Part shown: positions 19,753 through 26,292 of the stretch, piece by piece
How positions within the stretch are numbered: the first letter of the stretch is position 1
Layout: each line of letters begins with the position of its first letter
NCBI RefSeq assembly: GCF_003063475.1
Contig: NZ_NESP01000001.1
Span: 2,790,001-2,854,000, forward strand
Length of the DNA stretch: 64,000 nt
Source: Limnohabitans curvus
GTDB lineage: Bacteria > Pseudomonadota > Gammaproteobacteria > Burkholderiales > Burkholderiaceae_C
Reading direction: 5' to 3'
The notes under the pieces: generated by a model
What the model was told of the DNA's origin: nothing
Databases searched by the model: none
The model's input: the letters and a program-made list of their open reading frames with translations, nothing else
Made by a program: the position numbers and the translations under genes

Positions 19753-21369
19753 ATGTCGCACCAAAAAATCCTCATCCTCGATTTCGGCTCTCAAGTCACC
19801 CAACTCATCGCTCGCCGCGTGCGCGAAGCCCATGTGTTTTGTGAAGTCCATCCTTGCGACGTGACCAGCGACTGGGTGCGCGAGTACGCCAAAGACGGCA
19901 ACCTGAAGGGCATCATCCTGTCGGGCAGCCACGCCAGCGTGTACGAGGTAGACGACCGCGCCCCTGACGCCGTGTTTGAGCTGGGTTTGCCCGTGTTGGG
20001 CATTTGCTACGGCATGCAAACCATGGCCACCCAGCTGGGAGGCAAGGTGGAGGCGGGCACCACACGCGAATTTGGCTACGCCGAAGTGCGCGCCCACGGC
20101 CACACATCGTTGCTGAAAGATATTGAAGACTTCAACACGCCCGAAGGCCACGGCATGCTGAAAGTGTGGATGAGCCACGGCGACAAAGTGACCCAGCTGC
20201 CTGAAGGCTTCAAGGTCATGGCCTCGACACCAGCTTGCCCCATCGCCGGTATGGCCGACGAGGCGCGCAAGTTTTACGCGGTGCAGTTCCACCCCGAAGT
20301 CACGCACACGGTGCAAGGGCAAGCCTTGTTGAACCGATTTGTGCTGGATATTTGCGGCACACGCCCCGACTGGATCATGGGTGACTACATCGAAGAAGCG
20401 GTGGCTGCGATTCGCAAACAAGTGGGTGACGAAGAAGTTATCTTGGGCCTGTCGGGTGGTGTGGATTCGTCCGTGGCCGCAGCCCTGATTCACCGTGCCA
20501 TTGGCGACAAACTCACTTGCGTGTTTGTGGACCACGGCTTGTTGCGCCTGAACGAAGGCGACATGGTGATGGACATGTTTGTGGGCAAGCTGCACGCGCA
20601 CGTCATTCGTGTGGATGCCAGCGACCTGTTCTTGGGCAAATTGGCGGGCGTGAGCGAGCCAGAGGCCAAACGCAAAATCATCGGCGGCTTGTTTGTGGAC
20701 GTGTTCAAAGAACAAGCGGCCAAGCTCAAAGCGGGCGATGGTGGGCATAAAGGCGCTACCTTCTTGGCCCAAGGCACGATTTACCCCGACGTGATTGAAA
20801 GCGGCGGCGCCAAGAGCAAAAAAGCCGTCACCATCAAGAGCCACCACAACGTGGGCGGCTTGCCTGAGCAATTGGGCTTGAAGCTCTTGGAGCCATTGCG
20901 CGAATTGTTCAAAGACGAAGTGCGCGAATTGGGCGTGGCCTTGGGTCTGCCACACGACATGGTGTACCGCCATCCATTCCCAGGTCCAGGCTTGGGCGTG
21001 CGCATTTTGGGTGAAGTGAAAAAGGAATACGCCGACTTGCTGCGCCGTGCCGACGCCATCTTCATTGAAGAACTGCACAACTTCACAGACGAAGCCACAG
21101 GCAAATCTTGGTACGCCTTGACCAGCCAAGCCTTCACCGTGTTCTTGCCCGTCAAGAGCGTGGGCGTGATGGGCGATGGCCGCACGTATGACTACGTGGT
21201 GGCCTTGCGCGCCGTGCAAACCAGCGACTTCATGACCGCAGACTGGGCCGAGTTGCCTTATGCGTTGCTCAAGAAAGTGTCGGGCCGCATCATCAACGAA
21301 GTGCGTGGCATCAACCGAGTGACCTACGACGTGTCCTCAAAACCACCGGCCACAATCGAGTGGGAGTAG
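19753..21369 (+). CDS. guaA: GMP synthase (glutamine-hydrolysing)
   Basis: The 538-residue protein has a class I glutamine amidotransferase domain (GICYGMQT with the catalytic Cys; FHPEVTHT with the His) and an ATP-pyrophosphatase domain with the P-loop [11 protein letters not shown]. The C-terminal dimerisation domain ends in PPATIEWE. It converts XMP to GMP. The last codons (GAGTGGGAGTAG) form the left boundary of the 4.9-kb island. The original ending was probably GAGTGGGAATGA, which survives at 26293-26304. The protein sequence is intact, so insertion replaced only the final bases and the downstream region. Confidence 0.98.
21358..21365 (+). repeat. Left attachment core (attL candidate)
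   Basis: GAGTGGGA forms the last coding bases of guaA. The same octamer recurs at 26293-26300. The position at the 3' end of a target gene next to an integrase is typical of attL. Confidence 0.6.
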
Positions 21370-21407: not shown

Positions 21408-21416
21408 TGTTTCACA

Positions 21417-21501
21417 AAAGTTACACGCAGGCTATAAAAGGCTTGCGATTGCTGGGCAGGTGCAGTAAAGTTGCACGAAATGTTGCACACGGGTGTTGCA
21501 A
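21417..21501 (+). repeat. Four AAnGTTRCAC-type direct repeats upstream of the integrase
   Basis: Related decamers occur in direct orientation at 21417-21426 (AAAGTTACAC), 21467-21476 (AAAGTTGCAC), 21479-21488 (AATGTTGCAC) and 21492-21501 (GGTGTTGCAA). The last three are spaced 12-13 bp. Their location between attL and the recombinase gene suggests arm-type integrase sites or operator repeats. A palindrome CGTAAA-C-TTTACG follows at 21510-21522, just before the integrase start. Confidence 0.55.
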
Positions 21502-21532: not shown

Positions 21533-22614
21533 ATGGTTGTAAAAAAGAAAAACTTTAGCGAGAAGTTAGAGGAAGAGCTGATACTGGACGATGCGCTTTT
21601 ATACAAACGCGGCGACTACTATCACGTGCGCTTTTGGCTGGCAAATGATAAAAAATACGCACGATTTAGCTTAAAAACAAAGAATAAAACACTTGCAATA
21701 GACAAAGCACGTAAGCACTATTACGAGATAAAAGTACTGGAAACGCAGGGGAAAAAATACTACAGCATAACTAATGCTGATGGTGTTGATATGTACTTAG
21801 AGAAGCGATGGGAAGATTACAAGCGCGGCGCGATTGTTGAGGGTAGATACAAAACAATTAAGACGCATTTAGCGCACTGGCTTGAGTACATTGGAAAAGA
21901 TGGAAAGCTGAAAGAGCTTGAGCGAACAGACTGCGAAGGCTACTTTTACGCACGTACACAAGGGCATCAGAAAGCATCCCTTAACGCTGCACATACAACA
22001 GCACTAAATGAACAAAGCACAATTAATGCAATGATAAGTTGGCTACACAAACGTAGTGAAACTTATATTGATGGGTTTGATTTTGCTAAAGTTAAAGCAC
22101 AAGATAAAGGCGATTACGCTAACAGACGAGGCATATTTACAGATACAGAAATTGATGCAATTAAAGATTTATTAAAGAATAAGATAAAAAAATTAAAGCA
22201 CGAATTAGATAAAGATAACAATGCAACTACGTACGTTGCATTATGCTTTATTGGGTTGCTACTTATTACTGGAATGCGTAGAGGTGAACTGCTTAAATTA
22301 AAGTGGAGCAGAATACGTTTTGTTAATGAAGTAAGGGAAGTAACAAGTAAGAAAGGTGCAAAGGATGATTTGTTTACTATTACTGTGGATGGTAAGACAA
22401 GTAAGGTAAACAGAACGCGAGCTTTTGTAATTAAGGATGATTGTTTTGTTGATGCATTAGCTTTTTATTGTAAGAAGTTTAGTGCTGATAGATTGGGTTT
22501 TGAAGATAAGTTAAATGAACGATTAGATGGTGATGAGCTATACAAAATGCTTGGAGATAGGCTAGTTGGTAGCTTGAATGGTAAGACTGAATTTAGAGAG
22601 CAAACGTTGCATAC
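21533..22614 (+). pseudogene. Tyrosine recombinase (integrase), truncated by an IS
   Basis: About 361 codons remain. The N-terminal part has an Arm-type/AP2-like region (YYHVRFWLANDKKYARFSLK) and a SAM-like core-binding domain. The catalytic domain begins with GIFTDTEIDAIKDLL and keeps the first active-site Arg in TGMRRGELLKLKW, followed by the beta-hairpin region. The sequence stops at REQTLHT, where the IS begins. The H-x-x-R box, second His/Trp and nucleophilic Tyr are absent, so the protein cannot be an active recombinase. Codon usage is AT-rich, unlike guaA. The gene lies 163 bp after guaA in the same direction, the standard arrangement for an island integrase. The missing C-terminus is not found on the other side of the IS. 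Confidence 0.85.
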
Positions 22615-22673
22615 TGGCATTCCCCCAAATCAGTAGACAAATATGATGTCAAAACTGAAATGGAGAATTGCAA

Positions 22674-22955
22674 ATGCAACGAGCGAAATATGCCCCTGAG
22701 TTCAAAGACGAGGCAGTCAAACAAGTCATCGATAAAGGCCACTCGGTTGTCGATGTAGCCAAGCGACTAGGCATTGCTGAAGGTGTTCTGTACACGTGGG
22801 TCAGTAAGTTCAAAAAGGCTGATGAACCATCTACCAACGATCTAAAGGTGCTGCAAGCCGAGATGGCCAAGCTCAAGGCTGAGCTAAGACGCACTACCGA
22901 GGAGCGCGATATCCTAAAAAAGGCCGCCGCGTACTTTGCAAAGCAGTCCGGGTGA
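22674..22955 (+). CDS. IS3-family transposase OrfA
   Basis: From the ATG at 22674 (GGAG eight bases before) the 93-residue protein has a helix-turn-helix (FKDEAVKQVIDKGHSVVDVA) followed by a leucine-zipper-like coiled coil (LKVLQAEMAKLKAELRR). It binds the IS ends. A canonical slippery sequence A-AAA-AAG lies at 22916-22922 in the correct phase, so a -1 frameshift should fuse OrfA to OrfB and yield the active OrfAB transposase. The stop overlaps the OrfB GTG start by 4 bp. Confidence 0.92.
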   Translation: MQRAKYAPEFKDEAVKQVIDKGHSVVDVAKRLGIAEGVLYTWVSKFKKADEPSTNDLKVLQAEMAKLKAELRRTTEERDILKKAAAYFAKQSG

Positions 22956-23815
22956 AGTACGCATTTATTCAAGCCCACCGATCCGAATTCAAACTCACCA
23001 GCATGTGCCGCGTTCTCAAAGTTCACCGCAGCGGCTACTACGCTTGGCTGCATGAGCCGCTCTCAGCAAGGGCAAGAGCCAATGAGGTGTTGACGGCAAA
23101 GATCAAAGAGTTCTACGACCAGAGCATGGGCATCTACGGCAGTCCGCGCATCTTCTGTGACCTGCGTGAAGCTGGCGTGGCTTGTAGCGAAAACCGTGTG
23201 GCGCGGCTGATGCGTGTGGCTCAAATCAAATCAGTTCGAGGCTACAAACGCCCTAGGTACAAAGTGGGCAAGCCTTCATTGGTTGCGCCCAACCAGTTGC
23301 AGCGCCAGTTCCAACACGACGAACCCGACCAAGCTTGGGTGACGGACATCACGTATATCCGCACACATGAAGGGTGGCTGTATTTGGCGGCTGTACTAGA
23401 TTTGCATTCGCGTGCGGTGGTGGGATGGAGTATGGGCCCACGCATGCAGACGAGCTTGGTGCTGGATGCATTGACGATGGCGGTGTGGCGCAGAAGGCCA
23501 AAGGACTCAGTGATCATCCATTCTGACCAGGGTAGCCAATTTGGCAGCGATGAGTTCAACCGCTGGTGCAAAGACAACCGACTGAGCCCGAGCATGAGCC
23601 GTCGAGGCAACTGCTGGGATAACGCGGTTGCTGAATCGTTCTTCAGTAATTTGAAGAGCGAACAAATCAAGAAGCGGATTTACCAAACTCGGGCTGAAGC
23701 TAAGTCGGACATCTTCGATTACATCGAGGGTTTCTACAATCGAGTTCGACGCCATAAGCACCTCGATCAACTCAGCCCCTATGAGTTCGAGCGGCAGCGT
23801 CAAACTGCGCTATGA
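22952..23815 (+). CDS. IS3-family transposase OrfB (DDE catalytic part)
   Basis: The 287-residue protein has the HTH_21-like N-terminal segment (VHRSGYYAWLHEPLSARARA) and an integrase core with the catalytic triad in WVTDITYI, HSDQGSQFGS and CWDNAVAESFFSNLKSE. It is full length and intact, so the element may still be mobile. It lies in the -1 frame relative to OrfA and is probably made mainly as the OrfAB fusion. The OrfB frame is closed at 23815, 29 bp before the right IS end. Confidence 0.93.
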   Translation: MKYAFIQAHRSEFKLTSMCRVLKVHRSGYYAWLHEPLSARARANEVLTAKIKEFYDQSMGIYGSPRIFCDLREAGVACSENRVARLMRVAQIKSVRGYKRPRYKVGKPSLVAPNQLQRQFQHDEPDQAWVTDITYIRTHEGWLYLAAVLDLHSRAVVGWSMGPRMQTSLVLDALTMAVWRRRPKDSVIIHSDQGSQFGSDEFNRWCKDNRLSPSMSRRGNCWDNAVAESFFSNLKSEQIKKRIYQTRAEAKSDIFDYIEGFYNRVRRHKHLDQLSPYEFERQRQTAL

Positions 23816-23843
23816 AAAGTGTCTAGAGGTTTGGGGGAATGCC

Positions 23844-24245
23844 AAGGACGTTACTTACAGTGCTGAAGATTACATTAATGGCAACTACGGCAAAGCTGTT
23901 GTTGAGTTAATGTCACCGTTGGCTAAGCACTTTTTAGGTTTGACAGGTTGGGAACATGTTGAGCTTGATTTACAAGAGCTTGTTTGGTTAGCAACTGTTG
24001 TTGCACACATTAATTTAACTGATGAACAAGCAAAGAACAAGTTAACAGATACACAAATTAGCGCGATTTGTACTGGTATTGCAATGCGTTACGCACAGAT
24101 TGAGTACGGTAAACAGTTTACTAATGAACTGTTGCAGCTGCTTTTAAGCAGGTACAACGTGCGGTACAAAGAGTACAAAGAGCTTTGGACTAGGGCGCTT
24201 GAGACTAAAGAAATTGGAGCATTTTCTACACATGCATTTGAATAA
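23844..24245 (+). pseudogene. C-terminal fragment of an unrecognised island gene
   Basis: Directly after the IS, an open frame of about 133 codons continues to a TAA at 24243. It opens inside the IS (ATG at 23781), so the present product would be a chimera with some IS-derived residues. Codon usage is AT-rich like the integrase. The sequence (DYINGNYGKAVVELMSPLAKHF in parts, DLQELVWLATVVAHINLTDEQA) is helical and soluble-looking. It has no integrase boxes, so it is not the lost end of the recombinase. I do not recognise the family. It is most likely the C-terminus of a gene whose start was deleted with the IS event. Confidence 0.6.
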
Positions 24246-24356
24246 GTGCAGGATGGCGATGTTACGAGCCTTGGCTACGTTGAGCACTACACAACATTTG
24301 CTGCACTAGTTAACGAGCTTTGTCAGCAGCTTAACAATGTGGATGTATTAAGTTAA
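24246..24356 (+). pseudogene. In-frame continuation after the TAA of the fragment
   Basis: The codon after the TAA at 24243-24245 is GTG, and the same frame stays open for 36 codons (VQDGDVTSLGYVEHYTTFAA... ending LNNVDVLS). The composition looks coding, which suggests that the TAA may be a nonsense mutation inside a formerly longer gene. It could also be a tiny separate ORF with a GTG start; there is no ribosome-binding site evidence either way. Confidence 0.4.
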
Positions 24357-24817
24357 CTTGCAAGAGCTTGAGCAACTGCATTGCCCATTTCGTTAAAGTA
24401 CTTGTTAGCTTTTTCAGTTGCAACTAGGTACTTAGTGCGACGGTCTTTGCCCATGTAAATAAATTTAATAAGCTGCTGGTCGTCTAACGCACGTAGCTTA
24501 CGGTGAATGGTTGCAGGGGATGCAATGGCGCTTAATTGCATTGCTTGCGTTACTGTTAGTGCGTTGCTTTGTGCTGCTGCAACTGCAATAGCTTCCAGTA
24601 ATCTTAAAGCTGTGCTGTCAATAGTTTCCGCATCGAGCTGTGCTGTGACAGCGTGTGCAAGCGCAACGAAGCGCAGGTAAGCAGCGTTGTTACGCATTGC
24701 GCTTGGCTTGGCTTGGCTTGGCTTGGCTTGGCTTGGCTTGGCTTGGCTTGGCTTGGCTTGGCTTGGCTTGGCTTGGCTTGGCTTGGCTTGGCTTGGCTTG
24801 GCTTGGGTGTTTTGCAT
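24353..24817 (-). CDS. Small winged-helix regulator with a phase-variable N-terminal repeat
   Basis: From the ATG at 24817 the product has 154 residues: MQNT, seven QAKPS repeats (residues 5-39) encoded by 21 five-base units, then a winged-helix domain. The domain resembles MarR-like regulators: ALTVTQAMQLSAIASPATIH as the helix-turn-helix and LIKFIYMGKDRRTKYLVAT as the wing. A longer reading to 24967 exists but has no coding character. A TATAAA box (24824-24829) lies so close to the ATG that the mRNA may be nearly leaderless; no Shine-Dalgarno is visible. A change of one repeat unit shifts the frame: one alternative phase stops immediately after the repeat (TAA), the other after about 31 codons. 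It is likely a regulator of the island itself. Confidence 0.75.
   Translation of the reverse strand: MQNTQAKPSQAKPSQAKPSQAKPSQAKPSQAKPSQAKPSAMRNNAAYLRFVALAHAVTAQLDAETIDSTALRLLEAIAVAAAQSNALTVTQAMQLSAIASPATIHRKLRALDDQQLIKFIYMGKDRRTKYLVATEKANKYFNEMGNAVAQALAS
24701..24805 (-). repeat. 21 perfect tandem copies of a 5-bp repeat (CAAGC coding strand)
   Basis: The + strand reads GCTTG twenty-one times without a mismatch (105 bp). All three frames of the repeat are free of stops and read permutations of the same pentapeptide (Q, A, K, P, S), so only the frame downstream of the repeat depends on copy number. Such simple-sequence tracts mutate by slipped-strand mispairing. It lies within the first 40 codons of the winged-helix gene. 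With 21 copies the gene is in the ON frame. Confidence 0.95.
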
Positions 24818-24884: not shown

Positions 24885-24976
24885 GTGTAACTTGGTGCTG
24901 TAAAATACAAGGTTGTTAGTTGTAGGCTTTTTTTTGTTTGGTTGTGGGTGCTGTTTAACTTGCACAAAAGTTACAC
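24885..24976. repeat. AAGTTACAC repeats between the regulator and the right IS
   Basis: An inverted copy, GTGTAACTT, lies at 24885-24893. A direct copy within CACAAAAGTTACAC lies at 24963-24976. The latter 14-mer is identical to 21413-21426 in front of the integrase. The 180 bp between the regulator start and the right IS otherwise hold no gene that I can see. Confidence 0.55.
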
Positions 24977-25069
24977 AGTTTATTTTTACGAACGTAAGTA
25001 CTGACCTGCCCCCTCTGAGCCGTACCAAATCGATGGAACTAAGTTCGCTAATTTTGGAGAATGGCGGAT

Positions 25070-25336
25070 ATGAAGACCACACGATTTACCGACGAGCAGA
25101 TCATCGGATTCCTCAAGCAAGCTGAAGCAGGCATGTCCATCAAGGACATTTGCCGCTCTGGCGGCTTTAGCCAGCCGACCTTTTACAAGTGGCGCTCGCG
25201 CTTTGGCGGCATGGAAGCCTCCGATGCGGCCAAGCTGCGCGACCTGGAAGCTGAGAACAACAAGCTCAAGAAACTGCTGGCCGAAGCGCACCTGGACATC
25301 CATGCGCTCAAAAGCGTCTTCGGCGTAAAGCGCTAG
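25070..25336 (+). CDS. IS407-like transposase OrfA
   Basis: The protein starts MKTTRFTDEQIIGFLKQAEA and has a helix-turn-helix (SIKDICRSGGFSQPTFYKWR) followed by a coiled coil rich in Leu and Lys. The ATG at 25070 gives a better distance to GGAG (25055-25058) than the in-frame ATG at 25061. OrfA binds the IS ends. The stop at 25334 lies inside the region where the -1 frame of OrfB is already open, consistent with programmed frameshifting near the AAAAG run at 25310-25314. Confidence 0.92.
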   Translation: MKTTRFTDEQIIGFLKQAEAGMSIKDICRSGGFSQPTFYKWRSRFGGMEASDAAKLRDLEAENNKLKKLLAEAHLDIHALKSVFGVKR

Positions 25337-25368
25337 CCCCGCAGGTCAAACGCGAGGCCATCACCCAG

Positions 25369-26199
25369 ATGATCCAGACCCATCTTCTGTCTGAGCGCCA
25401 CGCGTGCTGCCTTGTGGGGCTAAGCCGAGACAGTTTTCGCCACCCGCCTAAGCGTGATGCGCTCACGCAGGCGCTGGGCGAACGTATCGTGGACATTGCC
25501 CACGTACGCCGAAGATTTGGCTACCGCCGCATCCACGATCTGCTGCGCCCGGAGTTTCCGGGCGTCAACCACAAGCGGATCTACCGCTTGTACAAAGATG
25601 CCAACTTGGCCGTAAGAAGGCGCAAGAAGGCCAAGCGCCCACCGTGTGAGCGGGTGCCCTTGCAACTGGCGCAAAAGGTCAACGATGTTTGGAGCATGGA
25701 TTTCGTCTCGGACAGCTTGTCCAATGGCAGGCGCATCAAGTGCCTGACTGTGGCCGATGACTTCAGCCACGAGTGCGTGGACATTGCCGTGGACTACGGG
25801 ATCTCGGGGCAATACGTGACACGCTTGCTCGACCAAGCGGCCACCTTCAGAGGCTACCCACTGGCCGTGAGAACGGACAACGGTCCAGAGTTCACAAGCC
25901 GGGCCTTTATGGCTTGGGCCACAGCACATGGCGTGCGGCACATCTTGACCCAGCCGGGCAGGCCGATGCAAAACGGCTACATCGAGAGTTTCAACGGCAA
26001 GTTTCGAGATGAATGCTTGAACGAGCAGTGGTTCTTGAGCTTGCCCCAAGCCAGGCAGTGCATTGCCGATTGGCGCCAGGACTACAACGAAGTCAGGCCC
26101 CACAGCAGCCTGGGCCGGATTCCACCGGCTCAGTTCGCGCAGCAGCAAAGGATTCAAACCAATGCCGCTGCAAATCTCAACCCTCAAGTTTTGGATTAA
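25369..26199 (+). CDS. IS407-like transposase OrfB (DDE catalytic part)
   Basis: The 276 residues from the first ATG contain the HTH-like segment CCLVGLSRDSFRHPPKRD and the DDE core: VWSMDFVSDSL, RTDNGPEFTS and GRPMQNGYIESFNGKFRDE. The -1 frame is open upstream of this ATG across the OrfA stop, so the natural product is probably the OrfAB fusion; the ATG start is only a convention. The frame is intact. No defect is visible, so the element may be active. Confidence 0.93.
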   Translation: MIQTHLLSERHACCLVGLSRDSFRHPPKRDALTQALGERIVDIAHVRRRFGYRRIHDLLRPEFPGVNHKRIYRLYKDANLAVRRRKKAKRPPCERVPLQLAQKVNDVWSMDFVSDSLSNGRRIKCLTVADDFSHECVDIAVDYGISGQYVTRLLDQAATFRGYPLAVRTDNGPEFTSRAFMAWATAHGVRHILTQPGRPMQNGYIESFNGKFRDECLNEQWFLSLPQARQCIADWRQDYNEVRPHSSLGRIPPAQFAQQQRIQTNAAANLNPQVLD

Positions 26200-26292
26200 C
26201 CTTGAACCCTTGGACTACTTCCGATTGATTGGTACGGCCAGAGGGGGCAGGTCAGTACTTGAAAAATATGAAGAATTTTTTAGGTGATTATG

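What the first reader, a model, noticed from the sequence alone, without database searches (positions are those of the whole stretch)
24701..24805. Candidate phase-variable switch: 21 copies of a 5-bp repeat in a regulator gene
A perfect pentanucleotide tract lies at codons 5-39 of a winged-helix regulator. Five is not a multiple of three, and all three repeat frames are open, so unit number alone decides whether the DNA-binding domain is translated. With 21 units it is ON; other phases stop at once or after about 31 codons. Phase variation of a regulator inside a mobile island would give mixed populations for island-linked behaviour. I know of no described example in this family.
Basis: partly seen in the sequence, partly recalled or inferred. 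Interest (0 to 1): 0.75.

Follow-up and report, generated by a model that had tools for sequence, protein, structure and literature searches.

The report
Repeat-tract switch in a regulator gene
A freshwater bacterium carries 21 perfect copies of a five-letter DNA repeat at the start of a small MarR-like regulator gene, and this most likely acts as a slippage-prone genetic switch, although a second start codon just after the repeat may leave the regulator partly on when the switch slips.

Summary
(GCTTG)21 is a perfect tract at 24701-24805, at codons 5-39 of a 154-aa minus-strand gene. n=21 is in frame; n=20 gives 40 aa and n=22 gives 72 aa. No other tract of this unit exists in its 3.03-Mb genome.
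The gene encodes a minimal MarR-fold protein of a family centred on Limnohabitans: 77 of 84 genus genomes, 40 of 40 good ones.
New support: homologue P0001 (95% identical over its domain) has the same leader with, by protein length, 9 units. Two others (P0121, P0024) carry a leader that reads as a heptanucleotide repeat. P0005 and P0024 lack the internal Met, so their leaders are probably translated. These are protein records; their DNA was not seen.
Main correction: unit number alone need not decide expression. Met41 sits where most homologues held start (158 of 209). In the n=20 phase the stop codon begins 5 nt from that ATG, so re-initiation could give a leaderless protein: a possible three-state switch.
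The "mobile island" is a decayed guaA-linked element with an IS-truncated integrase. Switching, an OFF allele and targets were not shown. New member of a known kind.

The parts
24353..24817 (-). MarR-like regulator gene, 154 aa with the repeat-encoded leader
   Evidence: ORF and translation; MarR fold; homologues
24701..24805 (-). (CAAGC)21 on the coding strand (GCTTG on +), codons 5-39, encodes repeated AKPSQ
24815..24817 (-). Met1 start codon; a TATAAAAT stretch ends 7 nt upstream, but the promoter scan found no site; no Shine-Dalgarno
24695..24697 (-). Met41 ATG, alternative start, at the position where most homologues held begin; the n=20-phase stop codon begins 5 nt from its A
24353..24697 (-). 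conserved winged-helix domain (114 aa); has the residue in all 27 columns that are invariant among the 29 other rows of alignment A1
21533..22614 (+). tyrosine integrase next to guaA, truncated by the IS3-type element
22615..23844 (+). IS3-type element (two ORFs, 25-nt terminal inverted repeats, 88% complementary); family name recalled
23845..24245 (+). ORF remnant of unknown function, convergent with the regulator; no relative in the other 83 genus genomes at E<=0.001
24996..26260 (+). second IS element (two ORFs, 22-nt perfect inverted repeats), 179 nt upstream of Met1
21410..21426 (+). att/arm-like repeat, left copy (TTTCACAAAAGTTACAC)
24960..24976 (+). att/arm-like repeat, right copy (16 of 17 identical)

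Best explanation
The tract is a slippage-prone translational switch at the 5' end of a small MarR-like DNA-binding protein. Replication slippage adds or removes 5-bp units. Unit numbers divisible by three (21 here, 9 in P0001) give the full protein with a disordered AKPSQ leader. n=22-type numbers give a useless 72-aa peptide. n=20-type numbers give a 40-aa peptide whose stop lies at Met41, so a leaderless 114-aa regulator may be made by re-initiation. The ON protein then binds DNA, most likely as a repressor as MarR-type proteins usually do; its targets are unknown. Shown: the tract, the frames, the predicted fold, and a leader variant of 9 units at protein level. Inferred: slippage and its rate, use of Met1 in this strain, re-initiation, repression.
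For: Perfect 21-unit tract with all frames open. The domain is intact: it matches all 27 columns invariant among 29 homologues. P0001 has an identical MQNTQ(AKPSQ)n leader, 20 residues shorter, i.e. 12 fewer units. P0005 keeps a short KPSQAK leader without an internal Met, and P0024 and P0121 have CAACCAG-type leaders. On a tree of 75 chosen rows P0121 and P0024 lie in separate supported branches, both apart from the window's clade. P0002, sister to P0001 on that tree, begins at Met41, as an out-of-phase allele would be annotated. Pentanucleotide tracts of 5 or more units are counted as potentially phase-variable in a Neisseria survey (PMC5953494, passage).
Against: No length polymorphism was seen within one population, and 21 and 9 are the same phase. 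DNA of P0001, P0002, P0003, P0005, P0024 and P0121 was not available, so unit counts there are read from protein. P0003, in the same clade, has no leader in its record. No Shine-Dalgarno at Met1 (+0.6 kcal/mol) or Met41 (+0.1), and the promoter scan found no site. Most homologues held need no leader (158 of 209), and of the 45 longer ones 34 also have a Met near the domain start. The tree has few columns for its rows, and the tool's label test does not rule out one origin of the heptamer leader. CAAGC and CAACCAG tracts also occur in unrelated contexts in 14 and 8 viral contigs.
Confidence: 0.55

Rival explanations
1. Met41 is the true start. The tract lies in the untranslated leader or changes only a spacer, and unit number has no or only graded effects.
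For: 158 of 209 homologues held start 4-8 residues before the YLRF-type motif, as Met41 does. In some genomic relatives an in-frame stop sits 1-4 codons upstream of that Met, e.g. L011, L014, L015. P0002 and P0004 begin at Met41.
Against: P0005 and P0024 lack a Met there and, unless a GTG or TTG is used, must start upstream. Met41 has no Shine-Dalgarno, though Met1 has none either. The ORF is open through 21 units in the frame of the domain, which has about a one-in-three chance if the tract is untranslated (inference).
Confidence: 0.22
2. Neutral expansion in a decaying element: the gene has lost its role after the IS insertions, and the microsatellite is free to grow.
For: Integrase truncated, two IS elements close by, unexplained ORF remnant. 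Such repeats turn up in unrelated contexts.
Against: The domain ORF is intact with all 27 invariant residues. The same leader with another unit number is found in another record whose domain differs by 5% (P0001), and a different repeat leader occurs in cousins.
Confidence: 0.15
3. The leader is a tolerated disordered tail that varies in steps of three units; frame-changing variants are purged, so there is no switch.
For: Both alleles with a known or inferred unit number are in phase, 21 and 9. Leader pLDDT is about 50-55.
Against: Gene callers favour in-phase alleles, so the sample is biased. The tract is perfect at 21 units with no interruption, which favours slippage in single units (inference).
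Confidence: 0.08

Closest known systems
mga of group A Streptococcus (polycytidine tract c.1571C[8]; PMC10330708, abstract read)
   Same: Slippage in a repeat inside the coding region of a transcription regulator switches it on and off reversibly and changes protein length.
   Different: Mononucleotide tract far into the gene (base 1571) of an unrelated regulator; shown by experiment. Here a pentamer at the N-terminus of a small MarR-like protein, sequence only.
Haemophilus influenzae hsdM (GACGA)n and tetranucleotide contingency genes (PMC2651432, passages read)
   Same: Repeat units not divisible by three inside an ORF, varying between strains and implicated in phase variation.
   Different: Modification enzymes and surface-structure genes in a pathogen, with short pentamer tracts (1, 2 or 4 units at hsdM, 3-12 in the survey). 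Here 21 units in a regulator of a freshwater bacterium.
NadR/nadA of Neisseria meningitidis (PMC2791445, start of abstract in the listing only)
   Same: A repressor and simple sequence repeats together make expression phase-variable; NadR is among the fold matches to the model (PDB 5aip, rank 31).
   Different: There the repeats lie at the target promoter and the repressor binds around them; here the repeats are in the MarR-like gene itself.

Membership tests
Translational phase variation by simple sequence repeats | Repeat of unit length not divisible by 3 within the 5' part of an ORF | tested here: met
Translational phase variation by simple sequence repeats | Unit number shifts the downstream frame, with the tract open in all frames | tested here: met
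   n = 15-27
Translational phase variation by simple sequence repeats | Unit number varies between related strains | tested here: inconclusive
   21 units here, 9 in P0001 (protein level); no second genome of the same species was found
Translational phase variation by simple sequence repeats | Out-of-frame (OFF) alleles exist | tested here: inconclusive
   P0002, sister to P0001 on the tree, begins at Met41, but its DNA was not seen; a cut contig or the caller's choice would look the same
Translational phase variation by simple sequence repeats | Frequent reversible switching with a phenotype | not testable with these tools
   needs reads or cultures
MarR-type winged-helix regulators | MarR fold: terminal helices around a wHTH with a beta wing | tested here: met
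   helix and strand order and Foldseek matches to MarR-type proteins, best E 1.7e-4, probability 1.00, TM-scores 0.40-0.65 in the 50 rows shown; SlyA by profile, E 0.0038
MarR-type winged-helix regulators | Curated Pfam MarR cut-off (PF12802, PF01047) | tested here: not met
   no MarR match for the window protein; relatives only below cut-off, e.g. 20.5 of 27 bits. It is therefore called MarR-like, not filed as a Pfam MarR member
guaA-targeted integrative element | Tyrosine integrase directly after guaA | tested here: met
   window and four other genus genomes (5 of 84 at E<=1e-30)
guaA-targeted integrative element | Intact integrase | tested here: not met
   open frame of 373 aa, about 360 of them integrase, against 432-454 aa in the four relatives; cut at the IS3-type element
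guaA-targeted integrative element | Flanking attachment repeats | tested here: inconclusive
   17-nt motif at 21410 and 24960, 16 of 17 identical; a similar motif was found only once in each of the four fetched stretches of relatives, which may not span the whole elements

The most novel reading that the evidence does not exclude
In this Limnohabitans-centred MarR-like family, simple sequence repeats of different unit size (CAAGC, CAACCAG) have arisen more than once in a leader added in front of the ancestral start. The window gene is a three-state switch: n divisible by 3 gives a long isoform, n = 3k+2 gives the short ancestral isoform by termination and re-initiation at the overlapping Met41, and n = 3k+1 gives none.
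Probability: 0.2. Interest if true: 0.65.

Novelty: new member of a known kind. Interest (0 to 1): 0.47.

Why it matters
Repeat-driven phase variation is known mostly from host-associated bacteria and from surface or methyltransferase genes. A long, perfect tract in a transcription regulator of a free-living lake bacterium, with a natural relative of other unit number and different repeat leaders in cousins, would extend the phenomenon to freshwater plankton and to a small regulator family. It makes a clear prediction that ordinary sequencing of a culture can test.

Tried and rejected
Sequencing or assembly artefact: rejected as the main reading, because another record (P0001, ENA), whose domain differs by 5%, has the same leader with another unit number.

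Same tract elsewhere in the genus: (CAAGC)4 in 2 of 84 genomes; the two places in G018 hold 4 units and the fetched 3-kb stretches hold no family member. DNA of the gene itself: matches in 14 of 84 genomes including its own, short pieces (30-108 bases) in the others. A single-sequence scan of genome contigs found no relative; with the alignment 80 loci were kept of 100. No match in plasmids by blastn. tblastn gave 3 plasmid records, all below 60% identity, and no phage record.

Viral contigs: 21 distant relatives (best 52% identity), no repeat leader seen. (CAAGC)5 in 14 contigs and (CAACCAG)4 in 8, none with a member of this family on the fetched stretch.

Heptamer in held genomes: (CAACCAG)3 in 1 of 399 family genomes, (CAACCAG)2 in 5 of 84 genus genomes; no family member on any of the fetched stretches. 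The genome behind P0121 was not found.

Regulator in the other guaA elements: none in 4 fetched stretches, one of them only 3.1 kb. Function of the remnant ORF: two Pfam matches below cut-off, no PHROG, no relative in the other 83 genus genomes. Neighbour clustering of 105 loci was dominated by spurious ORFs and gave no clear target; the paralogue at L060 lies beside an aldehyde dehydrogenase gene (name recalled).

Literature: 8 full-text searches. No listed title or abstract start described a repeat-switched MarR-type regulator, and no held paper has both 'Limnohabitans' and 'phase variation'. Lists were capped (e.g. 10 of 24) and only open-licence papers are held. Five papers were opened: four by passages, one by abstract.

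Full report
OBSERVATION. The tract is real and perfect: 21 units of GCTTG at 24701-24805. On the minus strand it is (CAAGC)21 at codons 5-39 of a gene that starts at 24817 and ends at 24353. Every frame of the unit reads as AKPSQ in rotation. Unit numbers of 15, 18, 21, 24 and 27 keep the domain in frame; n=20 gives 40 aa and n=22 gives 72 aa. It is the only tract of this unit in the 3,029,942-base genome.

ORGANISM. The window lies at C1:2790001-2854000 of a two-contig genome rated 100% complete.

THE PROTEIN. The 114-aa domain has no Pfam match above cut-off. The predicted structure (mean pLDDT 75.6; blocks of the domain 68-93, leader 50-55) has the helix and strand order of MarR proteins, and the 50 Foldseek rows shown are led by MarR-type regulators (best E 1.7e-4, probability 1.00, modest TM-scores). 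Relatives at E<=1e-6 occur in 77 of 84 genus genomes, 40 of 40 of the good ones, with up to 7 matches in one genome. Of 399 family genomes (141 genera) only the 6 Limnohabitans genomes match at E<=1e-20. Weaker relatives exist outside: 2 of 24 other-family genomes at E about 1e-11 to 1e-12, 3 plasmid records and 21 viral contigs. The own genome has 6 members; only this one carries a tract.

THE LEADER. Of 209 homologous proteins held here (the listed top rows of three searches), 158 start 4-8 residues before the YLRF-type motif, i.e. at the Met41 position; 45 start earlier, 3 later and 3 lack the motif. Of the 45, 34 also have a Met close to the domain start. Four of the 209 have repeat-like leaders: P0001 and P0121 by a repeat scan, P0005 and P0024 by eye. 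P0001 has MQNTQ(AKPSQ)n, 20 residues shorter than the window's leader, i.e. 9 units if the unit is the same; its domain is 95% identical. P0005 has a short KPSQAK leader. P0121 has ATSNQQP four times, which is exactly what (CAACCAG)n gives read through three frames. P0024 has about one such period after a similar KYYA start. P0005 and P0024 have no Met near the domain start, so unless a GTG or TTG is used their domain is reached only through the leader. On a tree of 75 chosen rows of 210 (few columns for so many rows) the window, P0001, P0002, P0003 and P0005 form one supported clade (100/99). P0121 and P0024 sit in two other supported branches, although their shared KYYA start and the tool's label test leave a single leader origin open. 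P0002, sister to P0001, begins at Met41; this may mean an out-of-phase tract, a cut contig or the caller's choice. P0003 in the same clade has no leader. All this rests on protein records, and gene callers favour in-phase alleles.

HOW IT MOST LIKELY WORKS. Slippage changes the unit number, and the phase decides what ribosomes starting at Met1 make. In the n=20 phase the TAA stop begins 5 nt from the A of Met41, a layout in which termination and re-initiation is plausible (established principle, not tested). In the n=22 phase the stop lies 91 nt beyond it. So the switch may have three states and not two. Neither start has a Shine-Dalgarno (+0.6 and +0.1 kcal/mol, against -5.6 for guaB and -1.8 for guaA), and the promoter scan found no site; a TATAAAAT stretch ending 7 nt upstream of Met1 hints at a nearly leaderless mRNA (sequence reading only).

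SURROUNDINGS. guaA ends at 21369 and a tyrosine integrase follows. The same place holds a 43-47% identical integrase in four other genomes (5 of 84 in all). In the window it is cut at about residue 360 by an IS3-type element (22615-23844); a second IS lies at 24996-26260. G+C is 0.37-0.46 in the integrase, remnant ORF and regulator domain, against 0.56 for the window. A 17-nt motif at 21410 recurs at 24960 with 16 of 17 matches. This is a decayed integrative element, not a demonstrably mobile island. guaA as an integration site is known for GIsul2 (recalled; PMC9376610 seen in a listing only).

COMPARISON. Repeat-driven switching of a regulator gene is known for mga (PMC10330708, abstract), and pentamers are implicated in hsdM switching in Haemophilus (PMC2651432, passages). 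The window therefore works like a known kind. What is unusual is the length and perfection of the tract, the small MarR-like regulator, the free-living freshwater host, the nearby second start and the recurrence of repeat leaders in the family.

AGAINST. No population data, no OFF allele at DNA level, no targets. 21 and 9 are the same phase. Similar tracts occur in viral contigs without any link to this family, so recurrence could partly reflect how easily such repeats arise.

VERDICT. Observation confirmed; interpretation partly supported; a good, cheaply testable candidate, of a known kind.

Noticed in passing
L246:3487-4356: In a viral contig a D12-class adenine DNA methyltransferase (PF02086, E 1.4e-27) has 10 CAAGC units at its N-terminus, so a phage methyltransferase may be phase-variable through the same repeat unit.
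   Followed up: partly
L247:1-1212 and the start of L248: Two contigs of one IMG/VR source (2820123897) both hold CAAGC tracts at their ends as fetched; the L247 frame continues into a 404-aa open frame with a methyltransferase-like DLACGTGTLLMAS stretch (motif recalled), no Pfam match at E<=0.001.
   Followed up: partly
P0004: This close homologue has a stretch LTCASLRLH that is another frame of the same DNA as in the window, which implies two compensating indels or sequence errors (frame by eye).
   Followed up: no
L060:10185-10532; L108, L112, L133, L263-L266: A paralogue in the same genome lies beside an aldehyde dehydrogenase gene (name recalled); in 7 of 15 loci scanned a tRNA-Gly(CCC) lies within about 0.45 kb of the regulator (positions).
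   Followed up: partly
window 23845-24245: Remnant ORF without any relative in the other 83 genus genomes and no family match above cut-off.
   Followed up: partly
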